Under the pieces are notes generated by a model, which was not told where the DNA came from, searched no databases, and saw nothing but the letters and a program-made list of their open reading frames with translations. 64,000 nucleotides of DNA from Archangium sp. (GTDB lineage Bacteria; Myxococcota; Myxococcia; Myxococcales; Myxococcaceae). The position numbers and the translations under genes are program-made. The stretch is taken from NCBI GenBank assembly GCA_030681645.1, contig JAUXRX010000025.1, positions 186,001 to 250,000 on the forward strand, written 5' to 3'. Below, piece after piece: positions 9,824 to 21,079 of this stretch. Each line of letters begins with the position of its first letter. Positions within the stretch are counted from its first letter, which is position 1.

Positions 9824-10387
9824 TCATACCTCGAGCACTTCCTTCTCCTTCTTGGCCACGACGTCGTCGATCTGCGCGATGCCGGCGTCGGTCTCTTTCT
9901 GCACCTTCTCGGTGGAGCGCTTGCTGTCGTCCTCGGTGATGACCTTGTCTTTCAGCAGCACCTTGAGCTTCTCGTTCGCGTCGCGGCGGTCGTTGCGAAT
10001 GGCGACCTTGTGCTCTTCGCCGGTCGCCTTCACCTGCTTGGCGATCTCCTTGCGGCGCTGCTCGGTCAGCGGCGGAATCGGCAGGCGGATGATCTCGCCG
10101 TCGTTCTGCGGCGTGAGGCCCAGGTTGGCCTCGAGGAGCGCCTTCTCGATGTCCTTCAAGATGCCCTTGTCCCAGGGCTTCACGGTGATCAGCCGCGGCT
10201 CGGGCACGGCGACAGCCGCGCACTGGGCCAGCGGGGTGGGCGTGCCGTAGTAGCTGACGCGCACGCCATCGAGCATCGCGGCGTTCGCGCGGCCGGTGCG
10301 GATCTTCGTCATCGACAACTTGAGCGCCTCGATCGAGCGCTTGATCTGCTCGCCGAGCGCCTTCACCGCATCATCATGGGCCGCCAT
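9824..10387 (-). CDS. frr: Ribosome recycling factor
   Basis: A 187-residue protein that, with EF-G, splits post-termination ribosomes. It has the family's coiled helical domain (IEALKLSMTKIRTGRANAAMLDGV) and conserved VSYYGTPTPL, KPWDKGILKDIEKALLEANLGLTPQNDGEIIRL (split here: PWDKGILKDIEKALL, LGLTPQNDGEIIRLP) and RRKEIAKQVKATGEEHKVAIRN. Length is standard. The ATG at 10387 follows GAGGAG. It lies 34 bases after pyrH, as in the conserved rpsB-tsf-pyrH-frr order, and is followed at once by the receiver/GGDEF-like gene. Confidence 0.97.
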   Translation of the reverse strand: MAAHDDAVKALGEQIKRSIEALKLSMTKIRTGRANAAMLDGVRVSYYGTPTPLAQCAAVAVPEPRLITVKPWDKGILKDIEKALLEANLGLTPQNDGEIIRLPIPPLTEQRRKEIAKQVKATGEEHKVAIRNDRRDANEKLKVLLKDKVITEDDSKRSTEKVQKETDAGIAQIDDVVAKKEKEVLEV

Positions 10388-10421
10388 GTTTGAACTCCTC
10401 GCTTTGGGGTTTGAAGCTGCT

Positions 10422-11171
10422 TCAGGCCATCACCGTCTCGGACGTGCCGACCAGGGTGCCGATGTCGCCGGGAGACAGCACCGCCCGCTGGATGTTGCCG
10501 CGGGTGGTCATGTCGAACACGACGATGGGGAGCTTGTTGTCCATGCACAGCGAGATGGCGGTGCTGTCCATCACGTTGAGCTGCTTCTTGAGCACGTCCA
10601 TGTACGTGACCGTGCGGTAGCGGCGCGCGTTCTTGTCCTTGCGCGGATCGCTGTCGTAGACGCCGTCGACCTTGGTCGCCTTGAGGATCACCTCGGCGTT
10701 GATCTCCATGGCGCGCAGCGAGGCCGCGGTGTCGGTGGTGAAGTACGGGTTGCCGGTGCCGGCGGCGAAGATGACGATGCGGCCCTTTTCCAGGTGCCGC
10801 ACCGCGCGCCGGCGGATGTAGGGCTCGGCGATCTGCTCCATCTTGATGGCAGAGAGCACCCGGGTGCTGCCGTTGAGCTTCTCGAGCGAGTCCTGCAGCG
10901 CCAGCGAGTTGATGCAGGTGGCGAGCATGCCCATGTAGTCGGCGCTCGCGCGGTCCATGCCCGTGGTGGCGCCCTGAACCCCGCGGAAGATGTTGCCGCC
11001 GCCGATGACGATGGCCACCTCGACGCCCGCGGCGCGCAGCTCCATCACCTCTTCAGCGATGCGCGAGAGCGTGCCTGCGTGGATGCCATACGTCTGGTCA
11101 CCCATCAGTGCTTCGCCCGACAGCTTCAGGAGGATCCGCTTGTAGCCGCCCGTCTTCGCTGGGGTGCCCAT
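10422..11171 (-). CDS. pyrH: UMP kinase
   Basis: A 249-residue hexameric kinase that phosphorylates UMP to UDP, essential for pyrimidine nucleotides. Motifs of the bacterial PyrH/aspartokinase fold are visible: [15 protein letters not shown] at the start, [16 protein letters not shown] (phosphate-binding), [20 protein letters not shown], and [20 protein letters not shown]. The ATG at 11171 gives the standard N terminus; a TTG at 11192 would add seven odd residues. It is the first host gene downstream of the RHS cassette and is separated from its usual partner tsf by that cassette, so its expression depends on read-through or on a promoter inside the cassette. Confidence 0.97.
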
Positions 11172-11245
11172 GACGGGGTGGAGGCTTACCAAATCGGGAT
11201 GGAGGCTGACGTGAAAGTTCGGAAGGCGGCCCCCTCGCGGATTAC

Positions 11246-12391
11246 CTACTGCAGGCAGTATTCGACGAAGCGGGTGGCGCCGCCGTCGGTCCTCGAACCG
11301 ACGATCAGGTTTCCTGACGCTGAGCCGCCATACAACGGAGGATAGTCCTCGGAGACGAACAGCCGCGCCAGCCTCCGCGGGGCCGCACCGTGCACGAGGG
11401 CCCAGACATTGACGTAGCCGTCCGCCTCGGCGGCCGCATCCCTGACGAGGAAGACGTCATCCAGGTCTGGAACTGCACCAATGAGCACCCAGCCCGCATC
11501 GTTCGACTCGACAGCGGCGTGGCCGCTTCCCCCGGCGGCATCGGTAATCCGCATGAGCTGCGTCGGGTCGGAGCCGAGGCAGACGAGATCAATCGAATCG
11601 CTCCGAGCGAACCGACAGTATTGAACCGAGGCGGTGATCGGGACCCCGCGCAGCTGAGACCCGACAAACAAGGCCAACCCCTGCTGAGGATTCCATTGGG
11701 TCAGGTATGCCGGCCCATCAGGGGTTGCCCGCGCGTCGACGCAGGAGTTGAAAGGGGCTGGCGTAGTCGTCACGCCGCCGTCGGCGCCGAGCTTCACGAG
11801 AGTGGCGGTCCTGCCGGAATCACCCAAACACACGGAGGCCTCATGCTCGGTGGAAGCGAGGCGCCCCTGAGCAAAGTCTCCAGGAAAGCTCGCCAGCAGG
11901 CGGCTGAGGCCTCGGGTTTCGAAGGTCGCGCCGGGAAAGTCGACAGACCTCAGTTCCGTCGGCCGCCCGGGTGTGGACCGCACGTAGAAGTAGCGAACCG
12001 CGTCAGGCCGAAGCCAGAAACCGACGAAGCCGAAGGAGGAGCCCGGCGGATGCACTTCCATCGGGCCGGTCGTGACGACTTCGGCCGTCAGGTCAGGCAC
12101 GAGCGCGTTGAACCGCATCAGCCAGACACCGGCACTCGTTCGCGGCATCGGTCCCGAAGACAAGTAATGACTGAAGAGGTTCGCCTCGCCGACGACGCGA
12201 GCGCACGGAGCCTGGGCAACCGGCTCCAGGCATCCCATGATGAGGATGCCAATCGCGAACAAACACCAGCATTGACGGCGGTAGACGTCGCGAGGAGTGG
12301 CATTCTTGAGACAGCGTGCTGGGCCGTTCACTCTCGCGCCTTCAACTCCTGCCGCTTCTTCCCTGCCAGCCAATCTCCAGTCCTTGATCAT
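11246..12391 (-). CDS. Hypothetical lipoprotein of the RHS cassette
   Basis: A 381-residue product with a long basic N region and a hydrophobic stretch [14 protein letters not shown], which looks like a lipobox ending at Cys54. The rest is beta-rich (for example [38 protein letters not shown]), perhaps a propeller-like fold, with scattered cysteines; no known family is recognised. The ATG at 12391 overlaps the previous stop as ATGA and has GGAGGGAG in front, so it is translated by coupling. GC looks lower than the flanking genes. It is the last gene of the inserted cassette before pyrH and may protect or anchor something related to the RHS protein; that is inference only. Confidence 0.7.
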
Positions 12392-12747
12392 GCTCCCTCC
12401 GCGAGTTTCTGCTTGACGGAGGCCAGCCAAGATCGCGCGGCGTCAGAAACTGAAGCTGCGTCAAAGGGAAGGGCGACGTGGACCAATCTCCGCAAGTCGA
12501 TCAGGCCTACTCGGATTGCCTCCCACTCAGCCGCCGAGCCCTCTATTCGAGCCAATTCGGGCAGGCACTTCTCGAGGCTATCGAGCTGCATGAGAAGTTC
12601 TGCGTGCGCCACCGGGTCGCCTAGTCGCTGTCGCCACTCAACGAAAGCCTCTGGGTTGGCTACAACGGCAATGAGGTTCATTCCGTTCATCAACGCTGAC
12701 GCAATGAACGAGGCGCGTTCCACAGCCGACAACCACTCACCTGACAT
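12388..12747 (-). CDS. Small protein directly downstream of RHS, candidate immunity protein
   Basis: A 119-residue, mainly helical and probably cytoplasmic protein (MSGEWLSAVERASFIASALM, then AHAELLMQLDSLEKCLPELA and IRVGLIDLRRLVHVALPFDA). No known family is recognised. The ATG at 12747 lies inside the last codons of the RHS gene (11-base overlap) and is preceded by AAGG with six-base spacing; longer upstream frames would run through the RHS gene and are less likely. A small gene coupled to the 3' end of an RHS toxin gene is the usual place and size for a cognate immunity protein, hence the suggestion. Function is not shown. Confidence 0.65.
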   Translation of the reverse strand: MSGEWLSAVERASFIASALMNGMNLIAVVANPEAFVEWRQRLGDPVAHAELLMQLDSLEKCLPELARIEGSAAEWEAIRVGLIDLRRLVHVALPFDAASVSDAARSWLASVKQKLAEGA

Positions 12748-15700
12748 CACACACCTTGAACTGAAGGCCACCAATGACGTGCATGACAAAAGCAGCACTT
12801 CCGTCAGCGCAAACATACGTACAGAAGAGCTTAAACAGCACAACAGGACTGCTGCAACCAAGGCACGAACCCCTGCCGCACTCCACGAGAGTGCACCGAC
12901 ACCCCGCACCACCACACAGGATGGTCGATGCGCACCCCATGGTAACGCAAGTCCAGAAATCCCTCACTGGGGGTGCTTCACCCGAGGGATCAACATGCTT
13001 GGCCGGACTACTGTATGCATATGCGTAAGCAGGCATAGGCATTCCAGTTCTCGGTGTCTGCCATACGCTTTCGGCCCTCTGCAGCATCGGCTCGCCTGAG
13101 AAATACCGGCCGGTCGCGGGCTCGTAGTGCCGGTTCCAGTTGTAATAGGGCCCCTGCGCGAGAATCAGCCCAGAGAGCGCGTCCTCGTACTGCCCGGGGA
13201 AGCGCAGCGGCTGCTCGAGGTGCGCGCCGTCGCCATCGACGTCCGTCTCGAGCCGCTCCACGTCGCCGAACGGCCGGTAGTCTGCGCGCCACACCGTCAC
13301 GCCCAGCTCGTTCGTCAGCCGAACCGGCGTGCCCAGTCTGTCGTTGTGGAAGTAGAAGATGTCGCCTTGGAGTTCACCGATTCCAGGGGCTGGCGGAGGC
13401 TCTGCCTGCGGGCCTTGCCCGTCACAACCCACCAACGTCAACACCAGCGCCGCCAGCGCCCCGCGCCCGTTGCGCCTGCGCAGCAGCACTGCCAGCAACA
13501 CGAGCGCCGCGAGCGAGCCAGACAGCCCACCACCTGACGAGGTGCAACCCAGCGGCGTGGTGGGGCTGCGCAGCGCCTTCCCCGGCCTCAGCGCCACCAC
13601 CGTCAGCGGCTCGCCGTCCAGGTAGACGTACGCGCGCTCGACTTCGCCGGCCTTCGACACCTCCGCGAGCAACTCGCCCGACGCGCCGCGGAGTTCCCAC
13701 GTCTCCTTGCCCGCCACGTTCGCGTACACGCGCCGGTTGGCCTCGTCGTAGCGGAAGGTGGCCATGGTGGCCCTCGCCGCGTCTTCACACGGCGGCGTGG
13801 TGGACGACACCTGCGCGCCGCTGCGCACCACCGTCTCCACCTGCACCAGCCGCTGCCGCGCGTCGTAGCGGTAGCACATGGTGTTGTGGATGCGCGGCGT
13901 CGAGAGCGGCTCCGCGGGGCCCTGAGCCAGGACGAAGGCGGGAATCTCCACCGTCACCGAGGTGACGGCCCCGTTCGCGTCGTGCGTGTACCGCCACGTG
14001 GGGTCGTTCTCCACGGCCTGCCGCACGTTCGCCTTCTCGGCGAGCCCCGCCAGCGTGTCGAGCAAGTCCAAGTCCACTGGGCCGAAGTCTACTCCTGATG
14101 CGCGCCGCGCGAGGTAGGCCGCCATCGTCGTCGCGAAGTCCACCCCGCCTCGCCTCGTCCCGGCCAGCACCCCCAGCAGCGACGGCGTGGGCACGCTGTA
14201 CTTCTCCATCCACGCACGGAGTTGCTCCAGCACCGCGAGGAGCCGGTTGTGTGCATCCGCCGCGCCGAGGGTGGGCGCGTCTCTTACGAGGCGCTTCGCT
14301 TCGCGCGCCACCGCCTTCCACTCCGCGTCGAGGCGGGCCAGCTCCCTCGGGCTCCTCGTCGCGCAGAAGGGCAGCCCTCCATCCAGCGCGACACCCGCGT
14401 CGGCCTGGCCACCACTTCCGCTGCCGCCGCGTCCGCTCCCTCCGCTTCCGGCGCCGCCCCGCCCACTGCCTCCTTTCCCGCGATGCCCACCCCCACGTCC
14501 GCTGCCGCCATGCCCGCGTCCGCGGTCGTCATCGTCTTCGGCTTCGTCGTCATCATCATCGCTGGTTCCGCGTGGCAGCCCACCATCGACGGCGACGCAC
14601 AGCCCGCCGACGGGCGGGTCGATGACGGCGCGCAGCAAGTCGTTGGCGGGCACGTCCCCACGGCCACCGGGCGCGCTGCGCAAGTCGAACACGGACACGT
14701 ACTGCTTCGTGCCGTTGCGCACCTTCAGCAGCCGGTTGCCCACCTCGTCGTAGGAATACGTCTCCGAGAAGATCGCGGCCGTCGCAGACCCCGTGATGGC
14801 CGCGCTCGTGAGGCGGTGCTCCTCGTCGTAGCCGTACAGTCGGCTGCGGGCCACGTCTCCGCTCTCGGTGGCCAGCCTCACGTCGCCCGTCGGCTTCAAC
14901 TCGTAGGCGAGGTTGACGGGTCCACCGCGCACGTCGGTGCGCCGGCCGAGCAGGTCCTCCCCGAAGGTGCTGGCCACCCCGTTGCCGCGCGTGAGGCTGC
15001 GCACCCCGCCGCCGAAGGGGTAGTGCGTGACGCCGCTCGCCAGCGTCACGCCTCCGAAGCGCACCTCGCTCAGCGTCTCATCGAGGCCCTTGTCCAGCTC
15101 CAGCACCGGCGGGCGACTCGCGCCCGTCTGCCGCGGGTACTCCAGCGAGGCCAGCGCCCCACCGGGGTGGTACGTGCGCGCGAGCGGCAGCGTCGTGGCC
15201 AGGCCGCTCAGCGTGGACTGCTCGCTCTGCAGCCGCCCCGCGCCATCCCAGGTGAGGCTCCTCGCGCCGCCCGGGAAGCTGACCGAGCTGAGCCGCCCCT
15301 TAGCGTGACTGCCGCTGTCGTAGCCGTACGTGACGAGCGGCGTGTCGGAGACGATGAAGAAGGTCTCCGGCTGGCACACCGGCGGGGATCCCGGCGCGCC
15401 GGGGATGCAGCTGCCCGGGATCGAGCCGTACACCGTGTGGAATTCCCCGGTGGGCCGGCGCAGCGCGTCGTACGTGTAGCGGAGCTCAGCGTTGGCCCGC
15501 GCGTGGCTCTCCGTCTTCATGAAAGTCAGCGCCCCGTCGGCGGCGTAGCCGTAGCGGGTGGTGCCGCTGTTGGGCGTCGTCACCTCGAGCGTCTGGCCGA
15601 AGTCGTCGAAGAAGTAGCGGGTGGGGTTGCCGTTGGCGTCGATGACTTCCGCCAGGTTGTCCATCACGTCGTAGCCGTACTGGGTGAAGGGCGGCGCGGG

Positions 15701-18637
15701 CTGCCCGCCCACGCGCCGCAGCGTCCTGCGCATCCGGCCGAAGCCGTCGTACTCGAAGGCGCTCACCCGCCCGCCCTCGTCGGTCGACTGCGTCAGCACG
15801 CCGTGGTGGTACTCGAAGCTCTTCCACACGCTGGAGTCGAGGCCGTACTCGCGCGTCACCCGGTGCGCTTCGTCGTAGTCGCGCTGCGCCTGCCTCGTGA
15901 GGGCACCGCTCGCGTCATACGTCTGCTCGAGCAGCACGTTGCCGCCGAGGTCGAAGGTGCGGTGCTGGCGCTGCAGCACGGCCGCTCCGAGGGCGACGGG
16001 CCCGCGCCACGTCACGTCTTCCAGCCGCCCGAAGGCGTCGTAGCTGGAGTGGATGGTGACGAGCGACGGCAGCGTCACCTTGCTCGGCTTGTTCCCCGCC
16101 GCGTATTCGGTGCGCGTCACCGCGCCGTCGGGGCCCATCACCATCGTCACACGGCCCTGGAGGTCGAACTCGTACGCCGTCACCTCGTTGTTGGCGTTGA
16201 CGATGCGCGTGGGCCGGCCGGTGAAGTGGTAGCGCTCGAACGTCGTCGTGAGGGCGAGCAGGCCCTCGCCGCGCGTCGTCGCCCTGAGCAGCCCCGCACG
16301 CAGTTCGTCCGTGTCGTCCGCCGGCCAGTACGCGTACGTCACGGGCACGCCGTCAGGCCCGTCGCTGCGAATCAGCCGTCCGAGGCCGTCGTACCTGAAG
16401 TGCGTCACCCTGAAGCCATCAACGACTCGGCATAGGAAGCGCGTGGGCGCCTCGTTGGGAATGGTGGGGCTGCCGGCGCGGGGCTCATCGACGCCCTCTC
16501 GGCACTGATGCGCAGGGTCGTCATCGTCGTAGTCTGAGACGGAGACCTTCACGCCCGAGTTGCCGGGCTGCGTGGTGAGGGTAGGCCTGCGCACCAGCGG
16601 GTGCTGGTACGCGAAGGTGAGGACGCGCTCGGGGGAGACGCCCCACACGCCGGCCTGCTCGTCGCGCTGTCGCTCGCCGGTGGGCCGGCCGAAGCGGTAC
16701 GGGTCCAGCACGCCGCTGCCGAAGGTGAAGAGTGAGGTCGTCAGTCCCTGTCGCAGTTGGGCGATGACAGGCACGACGTTGTCGAGCGGGTGCGTGTCCC
16801 AGACACGCGCGACGCTGCTGCCGCAGCCGCACGTCTCGCCTACGCTCTGCACGCGGTTGAACTGCGTGTTGACTTCGCGTGTGTGGCTCACTGTCACGGC
16901 TGGAGAGAACGCGCTGCGCACACTGACGGAGAGCATCCTCGTCGGCTCGCTCTGCGGCGTGAAGGTGAAGCTCAGCGACTCGGTCGCAGACTCCGAGGTC
17001 GTCGCCAGCACGCCCAGACCCGAGACTCGCTGGTACTGGTGGCGCTCCACCGTCTTGCCAGCTTCATCGATGACTTCTGCCAGGCGCATCGGGCCCGTCT
17101 CCACGGCGACGTACCGGAAATGGAACAGGGTGCGCATCCCCGCTGAGTGGCAGGCGTCGCTCGCCCCTGGGAGAGGAGCTTCGGGCGCGCAGATGTCCGT
17201 GAGGTGGCCGGCGCCATCCAGCAGCACCCGGGCGACCGTGGTTTCGACGGAGCCCGCCGTGGCCACCAGGTCGGTGCGCGTCGCCGAGTAGCGGTGGAGC
17301 GCGACGCTCCTTGGTCCCTGGCTCAGCCCCTTGCGGCTCGGAGTCGTCGTGGGCGCGCCTGGCGCAGGGAAGAAATACCGCTGCTCGTTCCCCGCGAGGT
17401 CTCGCAACCCGGCGAAGGCGCCCGACGAAGAGAAGAGCGCCGTGCTGCCGTCCTCGAAGACGACGCGCGGCGCGACCGTCTGGCTTCCGGGGCAGGGGGA
17501 CTGAGGGCAAAGCTCAATGCCGCCGCTCGTCGCGAGGTAGAAGCCGAGGTTGGCGCCGCCCAGCGATCGCGTGAAGAGCGTCGCGTCGGGCAAGCTGCCA
17601 CCCTCAAGGGCCGCTGTGGCCGGAAGCGGAAACTGCGAAGCGATGCCCACGTCGCTCCAGTACATCGCCTTCGCTGGGCCGGTGGTGACTCGCTGCTCGG
17701 TGTTGAGCGTCCACCCGATGCCGAGCTCGCCCTGGAGCAGGTTGCGGCTGTTGTAGGTGATGGCCAGGCGAAGCGGCGTGCCCGCCGGCGTCGCCAGCGA
17801 CACCAACTCGAGCGGACCGAAGGACATGTTGCCCGTCGTCATGCTGACAGGCTGGCCCGCTACGTCGACGCATAAGGGTCCGCCACGGGGACCACTAGCT
17901 GGGCCGCCGCCGCGACCACCTCTCGGAAAATCCGGCTCGGTGCAATCGTTGTCGACGGTGCCGTCGCAGTCGTTGTCGACTCCATCGCAGACTTCCGCCG
18001 CGCGGATCTTCCGGCCCACACAGTTGATGTCGCCGTTTGGCGAACAGGTCGGCTGTCCACGCACACACACTTCGGGGGCGAGTGGGCACCAAGGGTCGGC
18101 AGGAGGGTTGTTGGGCACTCCGTCGCAGTCGAGGTCCAGTCCTTCGCAGGTCTCGGAGGTCTTTGAGACGCTGCAAGCGCCCCACTCGGAGCCGATCGGT
18201 ACCTTCGCCCCATTCACCATTGGGAGGCAGGTCTGCGTGCCCCTTCCGCACGCACCTAACTCAGGGCAAGGACGCGTCGCACCCGGCGTGCAGGGCCAGG
18301 CCGCGCACCCAGAACATGTTGAACTCACGGGCGCAGAGTTATCGCAGAAGGCTTCGCTGCAAGTTCCCGTGCTCGGGCCGCCGCACTGGCTGAGGCAGCT
18401 CCCGGCAATCTTCACACCGCTGCAGGTGTAGCCGCAGACCTCAGCAAGATTGATACTCCCGGGCTGTCCCGGCGCCGACTGCCTGTCGATGCATCTGCTT
18501 GTCGAACCGGTGCATAGCTGCGCGAACGCGGTGGTGGACGTCGTCGCACAGACGCACCAGACCATCAGTACAGCTCGGAACGACGAACAAGCGACCCTCG
18601 AGCAACGACCAACGACCCCCGTCCGCGCCTGTGTCAA
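12737..18637 (-). CDS. Giant RHS-repeat protein, possible polymorphic toxin
   Basis: A 1966-residue protein. The N terminus has a signal-like stretch (AVLMVWCVCATTSTTAFA) and a cysteine-rich region with MopE-type metal-binding motifs (CDGVDNDCDGTVDNDC). Then come YD/RHS repeats from about residue 270 to 1690, such as YDAFGRLEDVTWRG, YEFDLQGRVTMVMGPDG and YDEVGNRLLKVRNG. An acidic then Gly-rich low-complexity insert lies at about 1359-1416. At 1696-1737 there is an internal MYXO-CTERM-like segment joined to a lipobox. The RHS core follows (FHNDRLGTPVRLTNE, RFPGQYEDALSGL, YEPATGRYF, VDPSGE), then an 80-residue cysteine-rich tip. The TTG at 18637 is chosen because GAGG precedes it; the frame is open to 18694. 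RHS shells usually encapsulate a C-terminal toxin. Confidence 0.9.
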   Translation of the reverse strand: MTQARTGVVGRCSRVACSSFRAVLMVWCVCATTSTTAFAQLCTGSTSRCIDRQSAPGQPGSINLAEVCGYTCSGVKIAGSCLSQCGGPSTGTCSEAFCDNSAPVSSTCSGCAAWPCTPGATRPCPELGACGRGTQTCLPMVNGAKVPIGSEWGACSVSKTSETCEGLDLDCDGVPNNPPADPWCPLAPEVCVRGQPTCSPNGDINCVGRKIRAAEVCDGVDNDCDGTVDNDCTEPDFPRGGRGGGPASGPRGGPLCVDVAGQPVSMTTGNMSFGPLELVSLATPAGTPLRLAITYNSRNLLQGELGIGWTLNTEQRVTTGPAKAMYWSDVGIASQFPLPATAALEGGSLPDATLFTRSLGGANLGFYLATSGGIELCPQSPCPGSQTVAPRVVFEDGSTALFSSSGAFAGLRDLAGNEQRYFFPAPGAPTTTPSRKGLSQGPRSVALHRYSATRTDLVATAGSVETTVARVLLDGAGHLTDICAPEAPLPGASDACHSAGMRTLFHFRYVAVETGPMRLAEVIDEAGKTVERHQYQRVSGLGVLATTSESATESLSFTFTPQSEPTRMLSVSVRSAFSPAVTVSHTREVNTQFNRVQSVGETCGCGSSVARVWDTHPLDNVVPVIAQLRQGLTTSLFTFGSGVLDPYRFGRPTGERQRDEQAGVWGVSPERVLTFAYQHPLVRRPTLTTQPGNSGVKVSVSDYDDDDPAHQCREGVDEPRAGSPTIPNEAPTRFLCRVVDGFRVTHFRYDGLGRLIRSDGPDGVPVTYAYWPADDTDELRAGLLRATTRGEGLLALTTTFERYHFTGRPTRIVNANNEVTAYEFDLQGRVTMVMGPDGAVTRTEYAAGNKPSKVTLPSLVTIHSSYDAFGRLEDVTWRGPVALGAAVLQRQHRTFDLGGNVLLEQTYDASGALTRQAQRDYDEAHRVTREYGLDSSVWKSFEYHHGVLTQSTDEGGRVSAFEYDGFGRMRRTLRRVGGQPAPPFTQYGYDVMDNLAEVIDANGNPTRYFFDDFGQTLEVTTPNSGTTRYGYAADGALTFMKTESHARANAELRYTYDALRRPTGEFHTVYGSIPGSCIPGAPGSPPVCQPETFFIVSDTPLVTYGYDSGSHAKGRLSSVSFPGGARSLTWDGAGRLQSEQSTLSGLATTLPLARTYHPGGALASLEYPRQTGASRPPVLELDKGLDETLSEVRFGGVTLASGVTHYPFGGGVRSLTRGNGVASTFGEDLLGRRTDVRGGPVNLAYELKPTGDVRLATESGDVARSRLYGYDEEHRLTSAAITGSATAAIFSETYSYDEVGNRLLKVRNGTKQYVSVFDLRSAPGGRGDVPANDLLRAVIDPPVGGLCVAVDGGLPRGTSDDDDDEAEDDDDRGRGHGGSGRGGGHRGKGGSGRGGAGSGGSGRGGSGSGGQADAGVALDGGLPFCATRSPRELARLDAEWKAVAREAKRLVRDAPTLGAADAHNRLLAVLEQLRAWMEKYSVPTPSLLGVLAGTRRGGVDFATTMAAYLARRASGVDFGPVDLDLLDTLAGLAEKANVRQAVENDPTWRYTHDANGAVTSVTVEIPAFVLAQGPAEPLSTPRIHNTMCYRYDARQRLVQVETVVRSGAQVSSTTPPCEDAARATMATFRYDEANRRVYANVAGKETWELRGASGELLAEVSKAGEVERAYVYLDGEPLTVVALRPGKALRSPTTPLGCTSSGGGLSGSLAALVLLAVLLRRRNGRGALAALVLTLVGCDGQGPQAEPPPAPGIGELQGDIFYFHNDRLGTPVRLTNELGVTVWRADYRPFGDVERLETDVDGDGAHLEQPLRFPGQYEDALSGLILAQGPYYNWNRHYEPATGRYFSGEPMLQRAESVWQTPRTGMPMPAYAYAYSSPAKHVDPSGEAPPVRDFWTCVTMGCASTILCGGAGCRCTLVECGRGSCLGCSSPVVLFKLFCTYVCADGSAAFVMHVIGGLQFKVCDVR
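13426..13552 (-). other. Internal MYXO-CTERM-like segment fused to a lipoprotein-type signal
   Basis: Within the RHS frame, residues 1696-1737 read LGCTSSGGGLSG, a hydrophobic run (SLAALVLLAVLL), RRRNGRG, a second hydrophobic run (ALAALVLTLVGC) and DGQ. The first half has the shape of the myxobacterial C-terminal sorting tag (Cys-Ser-Gly, membrane span, Arg cluster). The second half looks like the start of a lipoprotein. Both are in one open frame with no stop between them. Confidence 0.7.
14390..14570 (-). repeat. Low-complexity acidic/glycine-rich insert in RHS
   Basis: The encoded residues go from an Asp/Glu run (DDDDDEAEDDDD) to short Gly-Ser-Arg repeats (GHGGSGRGGGHRGKGG, GSGGSGRGGSGSGG). 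At DNA level this is a run of imperfect GGC/GGA-rich tandem units. It interrupts the RHS repeats and probably forms a flexible surface loop. Confidence 0.75.
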
Positions 18638-18732
18638 TCGCCCCCCTCGGTTGATGGACGAGCAGCATCGCCCACCAGCCCAAGAGTCAATCAAGTGCCC
18701 AATGTGCGCGCGCGACCACAGCGCGATCTGAA

Positions 18733-19794
18733 TCAGGCCTTGCCGGTGCCCAGCGTCGCCGCGACGTCAGCCGCGAGGTCGCCCTTCACCTTCTCGATGC
18801 CCTCGCCCACTTCGATGCGGGCCACGCGGCCCACGGTGAGCGTGGTGCCGAGCTTCTTACCGGCGTCGGCGATGACGTCCTTGATCTTCTGCTTGTCGTC
18901 CTTCACCCAGAGCTGATCGACGAGGCAGTTGTTCTCGTAGAACTTCTCGATCTTGCCCGCGATGATCTTGTCCCACATCGCCTCGGGCTTGGTGACCTGC
19001 TCGCGCTTGATGATCTGCGTGAGGGGCACCTTCTCGAGCTTGCCGCTGATCTCGACCATCAGCTTCTCGGCGTCTTCCGAGCGGAGCACGCCGGTGCGGG
19101 CCGGGCCGTCCTTGATGGTGATCTTCCAGGTGTTGGCCAGCTCGTACTTGTAGCTGGCCTTCTCGAGCTCGAGCACGTCTGCGGGCACCTGCTCGCGGCT
19201 GACGTACGCGGGCTTCATCGCGGCCGACTGCATCGCCAGCTCGGTGGCCAGCGCCTTCGCGTCGGCGTGGTTGCTGCCGAGCACCTCGACCAGCGCCGCG
19301 ATGCGGTTGTTCGAGTGCAGGTAGCTGCCCAGCACGCCGTTGCCCTCGACCTGGAAGCGGGCGAAGCGGCGCACGGTGAGGTTCTCGCCGATGGTGGCGA
19401 TCTTCTCGGTGATCAGCTCCTTCACCGGCTTGCCGCTCTCGTGAGGCTGCGCGTGCAGGGCGTCGACGTCGCTGGGGTTGTGCTGCGCGACGTGCTTCAC
19501 CAGGTTCGCGGTGAGGGTGACGAAGTCGGCGTTGCGCGCCACGAAGTCGGTCTCGGAGTTGACCTCGACGATGGCGCCGAGCTTCCCGTCGTCCGACATC
19601 ATCAGGCCCACCAGGCCCTCGGCGGCGACGCGCGCGCCCTTCTTGGCGGCAGAGGCGACGCCCTTCTTGCGCAGCCATTCCTCGGCCTTCACGAAGTCGC
19701 CCGCCGACTCGGTCAGCGCCTTCTTGCAGTCCATCATGCCCGCGCCGGTCTTCTCGCGGAGTTCCTTCACCATCGCAGCGCTGATCTCAGCCAT
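18733..19794 (-). CDS. tsf: Elongation factor Ts
   Basis: A 353-residue nucleotide-exchange factor for EF-Tu. The N-terminal UBA-like domain (ELREKTGAGMMDCKKALTES) and the core motif VEVNSETDFVARNADF are exact for the family, as are MKPAYVSREQVPADV and ARIEVGEGIEKVKGD near the end. It is longer than the 283 residues of E. coli EF-Ts; most of the excess is a stretch of about 60 residues between VPADV (near 205) and GKIEKFYEN (near 275). The ATG at 19794 is preceded by AAGGAG. It follows rpsB as expected, but the RHS gene, not pyrH, comes next. Confidence 0.96.
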   Translation of the reverse strand: MAEISAAMVKELREKTGAGMMDCKKALTESAGDFVKAEEWLRKKGVASAAKKGARVAAEGLVGLMMSDDGKLGAIVEVNSETDFVARNADFVTLTANLVKHVAQHNPSDVDALHAQPHESGKPVKELITEKIATIGENLTVRRFARFQVEGNGVLGSYLHSNNRIAALVEVLGSNHADAKALATELAMQSAAMKPAYVSREQVPADVLELEKASYKYELANTWKITIKDGPARTGVLRSEDAEKLMVEISGKLEKVPLTQIIKREQVTKPEAMWDKIIAGKIEKFYENNCLVDQLWVKDDKQKIKDVIADAGKKLGTTLTVGRVARIEVGEGIEKVKGDLAADVAATLGTGKA

Positions 19795-19884
19795 GTCATT
19801 GCTCCTTCAATTGAATTTCGAAGATTGGAATTGAAACGAACGAAGCGCCGACTCGGCTTTTGAATGCGCGAGCCGACGCTTCCC

Positions 19885-19918
19885 GTGAACCCCTCGACTT
19901 CGCTCGGGGTGAACGGTG
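19885..19918. repeat. Dispersed inverted repeat, family B, copy 2 (one arm)
   Basis: CCCCTCGACTTCGCTCGGGG followed by TGAACGG, in the 128-base space between rpsB and tsf. Only the right-arm form is present, so it may be a truncated unit. It lies within the transcribed operon. Confidence 0.65.
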
Positions 19919-19922
19919 GTGC

Positions 19923-20882
19923 TTACTCGGCCTTCGCAGCCTCGGCGGCGGCAGGCGCCTCGGTGACGGCAGCGGCGACAGCCTCGCCCTCGGTGGCGGC
20001 AGGCTCGACGGGCTCGAGCGACGTTCCGCCCTTGTGCTCGACGACCGGACCACGACCCTCGCGGCGCGGCGCGCGGCGGCGGGAATCATCACCCGCACCA
20101 CTGCGGCCCTCGTGACGGCGGCGCTCTTCCTGCGCGTCGCGATCGGCGGCGCCAGAAGCGCGGTACCGCGCGGCACCTTCGATGGCGGCGTCGGCGATCT
20201 TGCCCGTGAAGAGCTTGATCGAGCGGATCGCGTCGTCGTTGCCCGGGATCACGTAGTCGATGCCTTCGGGATCGCAGTTGGTGTCGACCAGGCCGATCAC
20301 CGGAATGCCGAGGCGGTTGGCCTCGTGCACGGCGAGCGCTTCCTTCTTGGGGTCGATCACGAAGACCGCGCCGGGGAGGCGGCTGGTGTTCTTGATGCCG
20401 CCCAGGTTCTTCTCGAGCTTCTCGCGCTCACGCTCGAGGCCCGCGACTTCCTTCTTGGGCAGGCGGGCGTAGGTGCCGTCTTCCGACATCGTCTCGATCG
20501 CCTTGAGGCGGTCGATGCCCTGCTTGATGGTCTTGAAGTTGGTGAGCGTGCCGCCCAGCCACCGGTTGGTCACGTGGTACTGCGCCGACCGCGACGCCTC
20601 TTCACGCACCACGTCCTGCGCCTGCTTCTTGGTGCCGACGAAGAGCACCGAGCCACCGCGCGCGGTGACGTCAGAGACGAAGCGCAGGGCCGCACGGGCC
20701 AGCACGACGGTCTTCTGGAGGTCGATGATGTAGATGCCGTTGCGGGCGCCAAAGATGTACGGCTTCATCTTCGGGTTCCAGCGCTTGGTCTGGTGACCGA
20801 AGTGCACTCCGGCCTCCAGCATCTGGCGCATCGTGATGCCGCCGGCGGGGGCCATCTGCTGCTGCTGCTCAGTCTCGCTCAT
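19923..20882 (-). CDS. rpsB: Ribosomal protein S2 with acidic C-terminal extension
   Basis: A 319-residue protein. Residues from [20 protein letters not shown] to about 250 form the canonical S2 core ([93 protein letters not shown]). The last 70 or so residues are a charged Arg-rich then Ala/Glu-rich tail absent from E. coli S2. The ATG at 20882 ([15 protein letters not shown]) is chosen; AAGGA lies ten bases upstream. First gene of the rpsB-tsf operon, with a 190-base leader. Confidence 0.97.
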
Positions 20883-20942
20883 GGTTGCTACGTCCTTACG
20901 TGCTGCTTTGGTTGTGATCCGCCACGTGCCCGTTTCCACTTC

Positions 20943-20964
20943 GGTTCTCTCGACGAGAGAAACC
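20943..20964 (-). promoter_or_regulatory. Hairpin in the rpsB leader
   Basis: The minus strand reads TTTCTCTCGTCGAGAGAA, an eight-pair perfect stem with a one-base turn (so the real loop opens a pair or two). It is in the presumed 5' untranslated region, 60-80 bases before the rpsB start. S2 operons are often autoregulated through leader structures, so this could be part of one, but no known leader family was matched. Confidence 0.4.
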
Positions 20965-21079
20965 TCCGGCATCGACTCTCGACCCCATGTCGGGAGCACC
21001 GCGGCCGGCGTGGCACGTGTGAGTATTTTTGCTGCCGCCCCACCCCGCCTGTCCGAGCGCGAAAGAGGGACGCGGAGGC

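What the first reader, a model, noticed from the sequence alone, without database searches (positions are those of the whole stretch)
13426..13552. MYXO-CTERM-like tag and lipoprotein signal fused back to back inside the RHS protein
Residues about 1696-1737 read as a C-terminal myxobacterial sorting tag (LGCTSSGGG, membrane span, RRR) that leads without a stop into a second hydrophobic run ending in LVGC, a typical lipobox. The RHS core domain and Cys-rich tip follow. This looks like two ancestral genes, one ending in the sorting tag and the next starting as a lipoprotein, joined into one frame. A GTG codon in the Leu-rich run (before LLRRRNGRG) could even serve as an internal start for a separate lipoprotein carrying the RHS core and tip. 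If the tag is processed, the tip would be detached from the shell.
Basis: partly seen in the sequence, partly recalled or inferred. Interest (0 to 1): 0.75.

Follow-up and report, generated by a model that had tools for sequence, protein, structure and literature searches.

The report
Cut-and-anchor hairpin inside RHS protein
A large secreted myxobacterial protein of the RHS family carries, inside its folded shell, a surface-sorting tag followed at once by a lipoprotein signal, so that one gene may yield two separately lipid-anchored chains; the pair of signals is conserved in two relatives and resembles a wider, little-described class of myxobacterial polyproteins.

Summary
On the minus strand at window 13424-13549 the RHS protein reads GCTSSGGG-TM-RRRNGRG-TM-LVGC. 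The first half passes NCBIfam TIGR03382 (19.0 bits, cut-off 15.85) and just misses TIGR03901 (15.4 and 19.2 bits, cut-off 20). The second half fits a lipobox. Two full-length relatives keep the same order with both cysteines and RRR invariant, although the membrane spans and linkers differ. The segment is a 77-residue insertion in a strand-to-strand loop: 60 of 62 RHS-core places in 195 phylum genomes lack it. So a join of two unrelated genes is not the best reading, and the proposed GTG internal start is not conserved. Wider evidence supports the mechanism: of 42 MYXO-CTERM hits read in this genome, 5 are internal, and all 5 are followed at once by a second export signal. One such polyprotein keeps this junction in 25 of 25 spanning loci. 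The genome encodes MrtX, Lgt and LspA. Most likely the hairpin is excised by myxosortase and LspA, leaving a two-chain RHS shell with lipids at the seam. Processing is inferred. Internal MYXO-CTERM is in print for MXAN_5598; the tag-plus-lipobox form was not found in my searches.

The parts
12737..18637 (-). RHS protein, 1966 aa from TTG 18637 (open frame from 18694)
   Evidence: PF05593, PF03527, PF20148 DUF6531, PF11617 MopE; YD repeats and RHS core
18521..18637 (-). N-terminal signal peptide, ...ATTSTTAFA|Q (type I-like)
   Evidence: sequence: one of only three strongly hydrophobic runs; L009 and L036 also begin with a signal peptide
14021..14524 (-). Gly-rich linker (14408-14524) and helical domain (14021-14356), a second insertion shared by the three hairpin-bearing proteins and absent from the four insert-free relatives aligned
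13364..13594 (-). whole inserted segment (77 aa) between two shell strands
   Evidence: loop of about 10 aa in the insert-free relative, model
13472..13549 (-). internal MYXO-CTERM-type tag: GCTSSGGG + hydrophobic span + RRR
   Evidence: TIGR03382 19.0 bits, above cut-off; TIGR03901 19.2 bits in genome search, just below cut-off 20; invariant G, C, S, G, G, RRR in three orthologues
13424..13480 (-). second export signal RRRNGRGALAALVLTLVGC with lipobox LVGC (13424-13435)
   Evidence: fits a PS51257-like core pattern (pattern recalled), also met by L009 and its truncated tail, not by L036 (STC)
13259..13360 (-). PF03527 RHS motif, start of the part behind the hairpin
12980..13279 (-). RHS repeat-associated core (TIGR03696, 46.8 bits)
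13082..13111 (-). first half of the RHS aspartyl autoprotease motif, here GRYFSGEPML with Glu for Asp
   Evidence: Asp in 55 of 57 readable RHS places, Glu only in the two hairpin-bearing ones (16 of the 55 read by eye)
12740..12979 (-). Cys-rich C-terminal tip, different in each relative
   Evidence: no NCBIfam family
12388..12747 (-). 119-aa ORF overlapping the RHS stop; candidate partner or immunity gene (inference)
   Evidence: the ORF itself was not scanned against Pfam (one search scanned overlapping frames)

Best explanation
The segment is a cut-and-anchor hairpin. The RHS shell is exported through Sec by its N-terminal signal peptide until the internal MYXO-CTERM span stops transfer with RRR in the cytoplasm. 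The second span then re-starts transfer (N-in, C-out) and exports the RHS core and tip. Lipid is added at both cysteines; myxosortase MrtX cuts behind Cys1698 and LspA cuts before Cys1738, so the roughly 40-residue hairpin is removed. [quoted passage not shown] Shown: sequence, model matches, conservation, insertion site, presence of MrtX, Lgt and LspA. Inferred: topology, lipidation, both cuts, surface location, persistence of the two-chain complex.
For: Tag passes TIGR03382. Order GC-TM-RRR-TM-Cys kept in 3 of 3 orthologues: window, L009 (groundwater MAG) and G015. These spans and the N-terminal signal peptide are the only strongly hydrophobic runs in three proteins of about 2000 aa. Of 43 TIGR03901 hits in the genome, 42 were read: 5 internal, and all 5 are followed at once by a second hydrophobic signal. 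A CARDB/Ig polyprotein keeps tag + second signal in 25 of 25 loci whose match spans the junction (30 loci fetched); 20 of the 22 read by alignment end in Ala-Gln, like a signal peptidase I site. MrtX 317.9 bits vs cut-off 180, LspA 98.5 vs 73.95, Lgt 141.4 vs 118.9. PMC11980579 (abstract, Introduction, part 1 of Discussion and search passages read): MrtX cuts TraA's MYXO-CTERM, also in E. coli, and an internal MYXO-CTERM is proposed to be processed.
Against: TIGR03901 is below cut-off in both tests. The tag has one Cys, whereas the paper ties TraA cleavage to conserved cysteines (plural) and describes a generic GCGC motif. L036's second signal ends STC, which does not fit the lipobox pattern. 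Asp follows the window's lipobox Cys, which in E. coli favours inner-membrane retention (recalled). Both spans are short (about 11-15 residues). Only three full-length examples exist, so conservation rests on a small sample.
Confidence: 0.55

Rival explanations
1. Uncut anchor: the two spans form a stable helical hairpin that simply tethers the exported RHS protein to the inner membrane; neither signal is processed.
For: TM-basic loop-TM is a good re-entrant anchor by the positive-inside rule; TIGR03901 below cut-off; L036 lacks a canonical lipobox.
Against: An anchor needs no invariant GC(S/T)S-G-G motif or terminal Cys, yet these are among the few invariant positions while the spans drift. 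Internal tags elsewhere in the genome are followed by cleavable-looking signals.
Confidence: 0.22
2. Half-processed: only one signal works, e.g. the lipobox/LspA cut in the window and L009, or only MrtX, leaving one chain end with an uncut membrane span.
For: In L036 the lipobox fails and VLA-STC could be a signal peptidase I site instead; L009's truncated second copy keeps the lipobox half but not the tag.
Against: Tag and final Cys are kept together in all three full-length proteins.
Confidence: 0.13
3. Two genes joined, with internal initiation still making a separate lipoprotein.
For: For another polyprotein of the genome (adhesin + TraB-like) split and fused homologues both exist; the CARDB polyprotein looks like a fused tandem pair.
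Against: RHS strands on both sides are contiguous in relatives; L036 has no start codon between tag Cys and RRR; no Shine-Dalgarno seen in the window; no split RHS homologue among 62 places. One signal peptide + RHS core frame, G038, has a different layout and no tag.
Confidence: 0.07
4. Neutral or decaying insertion without function.
For: Found in only three proteins.
Against: Frame open over about 2000 codons and motif kept at 47-62% identity in three genomes of different origin.
Confidence: 0.03

Closest known systems
MXAN_5598 of Myxococcus xanthus (internal MYXO-CTERM; PMC11980579, Discussion part 1 and search passages read)
   Same: A MYXO-CTERM motif inside a long protein; proposed there to be processed and to stem from a fusion of two genes.
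   Different: There the tag separates an adhesin from a beta-barrel/OmpA part, two different domains. Here it lies inside one RHS shell and is followed by a lipobox. The sections and passages I read do not mention a second signal behind the tag.
Ordinary MYXO-CTERM proteins such as TraA
   Same: Cys signature, membrane span, arginines, N-terminal signal peptide, MrtX in the genome.
   Different: Tag is internal, single-Cys, below the TIGR03901 cut-off; 244 residues follow it.
RHS polymorphic toxins with aspartyl autocleavage (Tse5, Rhs1; PMC10684867, PMC8636562, passages read)
   Same: YD-repeat shell, RHS core, variable tip; fragments stay together after autocleavage in Rhs1.
   Different: First catalytic Asp is Glu and the DPxG context is lost in the hairpin-bearing group; a membrane-linked pair of sorting signals sits in front of the core.
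SitA lipoprotein toxins of myxobacteria (PMC8546572, start of abstract and passages read)
   Same: If cut, the C-terminal product would be a lipoprotein with a polymorphic tip.
   Different: The word Rhs does not occur in that paper's main text; delivery by outer membrane exchange is untested here.

Membership tests
MYXO-CTERM sorting tag | Signature with invariant Cys, membrane span, Arg cluster | tested here: met
   GCTSSGGG-LSGSLAALVLLAVLL-RRR; TIGR03382 19.0 bits over 15.85; all three elements in 3 of 3 orthologues
MYXO-CTERM sorting tag | Score over the TIGR03901 cut-off (20 bits) | tested here: not met
   15.4 bits on the excerpt, 19.2 bits in genome search
MYXO-CTERM sorting tag | C-terminal position | tested here: not met
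   244 residues follow
MYXO-CTERM sorting tag | N-terminal signal peptide on the same protein and a myxosortase in the genome | tested here: met
   (signal peptide by sequence and hydropathy, no SignalP run); MrtX NF040593 317.9 bits
MYXO-CTERM sorting tag | Cys-dependent cleavage by MrtX and surface location | not testable with these tools
   needs experiment
Bacterial lipoprotein signal (lipobox) | Basic n-region, hydrophobic run, PS51257-like core ending in Cys (pattern recalled) | tested here: inconclusive
   met in window and L009, not in L036
Bacterial lipoprotein signal (lipobox) | Start of the polypeptide | tested here: not met
   internal, residue 1738 of 1966
Bacterial lipoprotein signal (lipobox) | Lgt and LspA encoded | tested here: met
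RHS / YD-repeat protein | YD repeats, PF03527 and RHS-associated core over cut-off | tested here: met
   Foldseek best hits Tse5, RhsA, Tse15, on a low-confidence model
RHS / YD-repeat protein | Aspartyl autoprotease motif DPxG...DPxG | tested here: not met
   first half reads EPML; second DPSG present

The most novel reading that the evidence does not exclude
Myxobacteria use a general polyprotein module, sorting tag plus signal peptide back to back, to make two separately anchored surface proteins from one reading frame. In this RHS family the module has been placed inside a single folded shell, so that myxosortase and LspA, instead of the altered Asp autoprotease, cut the shell before the core and leave a two-chain toxin-like cage held by lipids at the cut, or free a lipoprotein core plus tip for transfer between cells.
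Probability: 0.35. Interest if true: 0.85.

Novelty: new variant of a known kind. Interest (0 to 1): 0.62.

Why it matters
How the signal-peptide-bearing Rhs proteins of myxobacteria are held on the cell and delivered is unsettled (PMC10433427, passages read, places them 'likely' on the surface). This segment names a concrete anchor and two enzymes to test, in a pathway (MrtX) shown experimentally in a 2025 paper (PMC11980579). It also suggests that internal MYXO-CTERM tags are not stray: in this genome all five that I found stand directly before a second export signal, and one such junction is conserved in 17 genera (my count of the genus labels for the 25 spanning loci). That points to membrane-cut polyproteins as a regular way of making paired surface proteins.

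Tried and rejected
Chance or artefact: rejected because the same order recurs in two other genomes and the spans are the only strongly hydrophobic runs. Two other places had a hydrophobic stretch upstream: G067:C1:1622704, a short frame not examined further, and G038:C79:30482, a signal peptide directly before an RHS core with no tag in the printed frames. Several of the 62 frames are short fragments with little sequence upstream, and five could not be read at the protease motif. Internal GTG start: not conserved. Split RHS homologues: none found. RNA element: no Rfam match in 11000-19000.

Led nowhere: the AlphaFold model of the window protein was poor (mean pLDDT 53.6, pTM 0.30); only the insert-free relative gave a usable model (65.3, 0.58). 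Neighbouring ORFs 11249-12430 and 12391-12915 had no Pfam family. Literature searches with MYXO-CTERM + RHS (two papers listed, one of them read in passages, nothing on this), sorting signal + internal signal peptide + polyprotein (none) and CTERM + tandem etc. (titles and abstract starts only, nothing relevant) do not prove absence; Haft's earlier in silico myxosortase paper (recalled, cited by PMC11980579) did not appear or 40 and was not read, and no supplement was read. Genome searches score only part of each genome's candidates, so more members may exist. My regular-expression sorting of fused and split TraB-like frames was noisy (several matches fell in unrelated frames), so no count is taken from it.

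Full report
What is there. The gene is on the minus strand, frame 12737-18694, 1985 aa from the first TTG; the likelier start is TTG 18637 with GAGGGGGG just upstream, giving 1966 aa. It has a signal peptide, a MopE-like motif, DUF6531, RHS repeats, a Gly-rich linker with a helical domain, more RHS strands, the segment in question, the RHS core and a Cys-rich tip. The segment reads ALRPGKALRSPTTPL-GCTSSGGG-LSGSLAALVLLAVLL-RRRNGR-GALAALVLTLVGC-DGQ.

Test of the tag. The excerpt starting at the segment scores 19.0 bits with TIGR03382 (cut-off 15.85) and 15.4 with TIGR03901 (cut-off 20). In the genome-wide search TIGR03901 gives 19.2 bits. So it is a MYXO-CTERM-type tag by one curated model and a near miss by the other. 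The second signal fits a PS51257-like lipobox core (pattern recalled) in the window and in L009, not in L036.

Relatives. A scan of the genome-contig collection gave seven loci, of which only L009 (Deltaproteobacteria MAG NC_groundwater_1658) showed the hairpin. Searches of 60 relatives and 145 order genomes added one more, G015; searches of 195 phylum and 147 class genomes with the three-sequence alignment added no further full-length match. The three full-length proteins share GC(S/T)S.G.G, RRR and the final Cys, while TM1 (2 of 15 invariant) and the linker after the Cys (1 of 20) are free to vary; the flanking RHS parts are invariant at 28 of 58 and 54 of 94 positions. At a threshold of mean hydropathy 2.2 over 11 residues each protein has exactly three runs: signal peptide, tag span, second span.

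Insertion, not an ordinary feature. PF03527 was found at 62 places in 34 of 195 phylum genomes. All 62 were read around the motif; 2 have the hairpin, the window and G015. In insert-free relatives the two flanking strands are joined by a short loop, e.g. YIWLDGRPLAQIEYPGPAGSTEG-YTYYLHVDH. AlphaFold of such a relative (L010, mean pLDDT 65.3, pTM 0.58) puts this loop at 645-654 between strands 638-644 and 655-661, in blocks with pLDDT about 77-79. The window's own model is poor, but there too the insert lies between strands 884-891 and 969-973. The hairpin-bearing proteins also share a second insertion (Gly linker plus helices) that the four insert-free relatives aligned lack.

The tag class in the same genome. 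TIGR03901 gave 43 hits at E<=1. I read 42 (one, C62:437522, was not held). Thirty-seven have fewer than 100 residues behind them. Five are internal: the RHS protein; C62:391065, a 2080-aa CARDB/Ig protein that looks like a tandem pair and ends in a second tag; C47:437036, a 2985-aa adhesin with a TraB-like OmpA half; C61:12037; and C25:76590. All five are followed at once by a second hydrophobic run; four of these end like a signal peptidase I site, only the RHS one in a lipobox (judged by eye).

Conservation of such junctions. The C62 junction was searched in 145 order genomes: 30 had a match at E<=1e-10. Of the 30 loci fetched, five matches begin behind the junction; in the other 25 the tag and second signal are both present (22 read by alignment, three more found by pattern). 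In the 22, the Cys is present 22 of 22 and the second signal ends in Ala-Gln 20 of 22 (counted by eye). The C47 second half matched in 108 of 145 genomes, many as frames of 600-700 aa whose match begins near the second signal; several begin with Met and a signal peptide (e.g. L217, L224, L225, L234); long fused frames also occur. So in that family a gene join is well supported.

Enzymes. The genome has a myxosortase MrtX (L156, NF040593, 317.9 bits, cut-off 180), LspA (98.5 bits, cut-off 73.95) and Lgt (141.4 bits, cut-off 118.9).

Protease motif. In RHS toxins the tip is cut off by an aspartyl protease with motif DPXGX18DPXG, and changing either Asp stops the cut in Tse5 (PMC10684867, passages). 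At the first Asp, 55 of 57 readable places of the 62 have Asp (39 by script, 16 by eye); the two with Glu are the window and G015. L009 and its truncated tail also have Glu. Whether Glu works is unknown. It fits, but does not prove, that another cut has taken over.

Mechanism. By the positive-inside rule the hairpin places both ends outside and the arginines inside. The tag is then presented to MrtX as in TraA and the lipobox to Lgt and LspA as in any lipoprotein. The published model says lipid first, then MrtX cut (PMC11980579, Discussion part 1), and proposes that an internal tag is processed. In Rhs1 the fragments stay together after autocleavage (PMC8636562, passages), so a two-chain shell is plausible here. 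None of these steps has been shown for this protein.

Novelty. Internal MYXO-CTERM is known from MXAN_5598 and 'rare cases' (PMC11980579). A tag plus lipobox inside one RHS shell, and the rule that internal tags are followed by a second export signal, were not found; absence from print is not proven. I rate it a new variant of a known kind.

Noticed in passing
window 9827-20999 (-): The RHS gene and two small ORFs interrupt the rpsB-tsf-pyrH-frr gene order: S2 19926-20999, EF-Ts 18736-19794, then RHS, then an amino-acid-kinase family gene in the pyrH position 10425-11192 and RRF 9827-10387.
   Followed up: partly
window 11246-12391 (-): ORF starting in ATGA overlap with the 119-aa ORF, with a lipoprotein-like start (IGILIMGC); possible partner of the RHS system.
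   Followed up: no
L009:9834-10961 (+): Second, truncated RHS tail with a very similar core but another tip; it keeps the lipobox half (WLSAGC) and has lost the tag, as in displaced tip cassettes.
   Followed up: partly
G000:C62:388365-391148 (L133): 2080-aa CARDB/Ig protein that looks like two similar proteins in one frame, each ending in a MYXO-CTERM-like tag, with a signal peptide between.
   Followed up: yes
G000:C61:12037 (L192) and C25:76590 (L199): Two similar shorter polyproteins with internal single-Cys tag plus signal peptide.
   Followed up: no
L131 (G038:C79): A 372-aa frame with a signal peptide directly in front of an RHS core and tip.
   Followed up: no
own genome, MYXO-CTERM hits: Many terminal tags read GCGC or similar with two Cys, whereas four of the five internal ones have a single Cys (GCSS, GCTS, GCSV); C47 is the exception. 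May mark a tag subtype (not counted).
   Followed up: no
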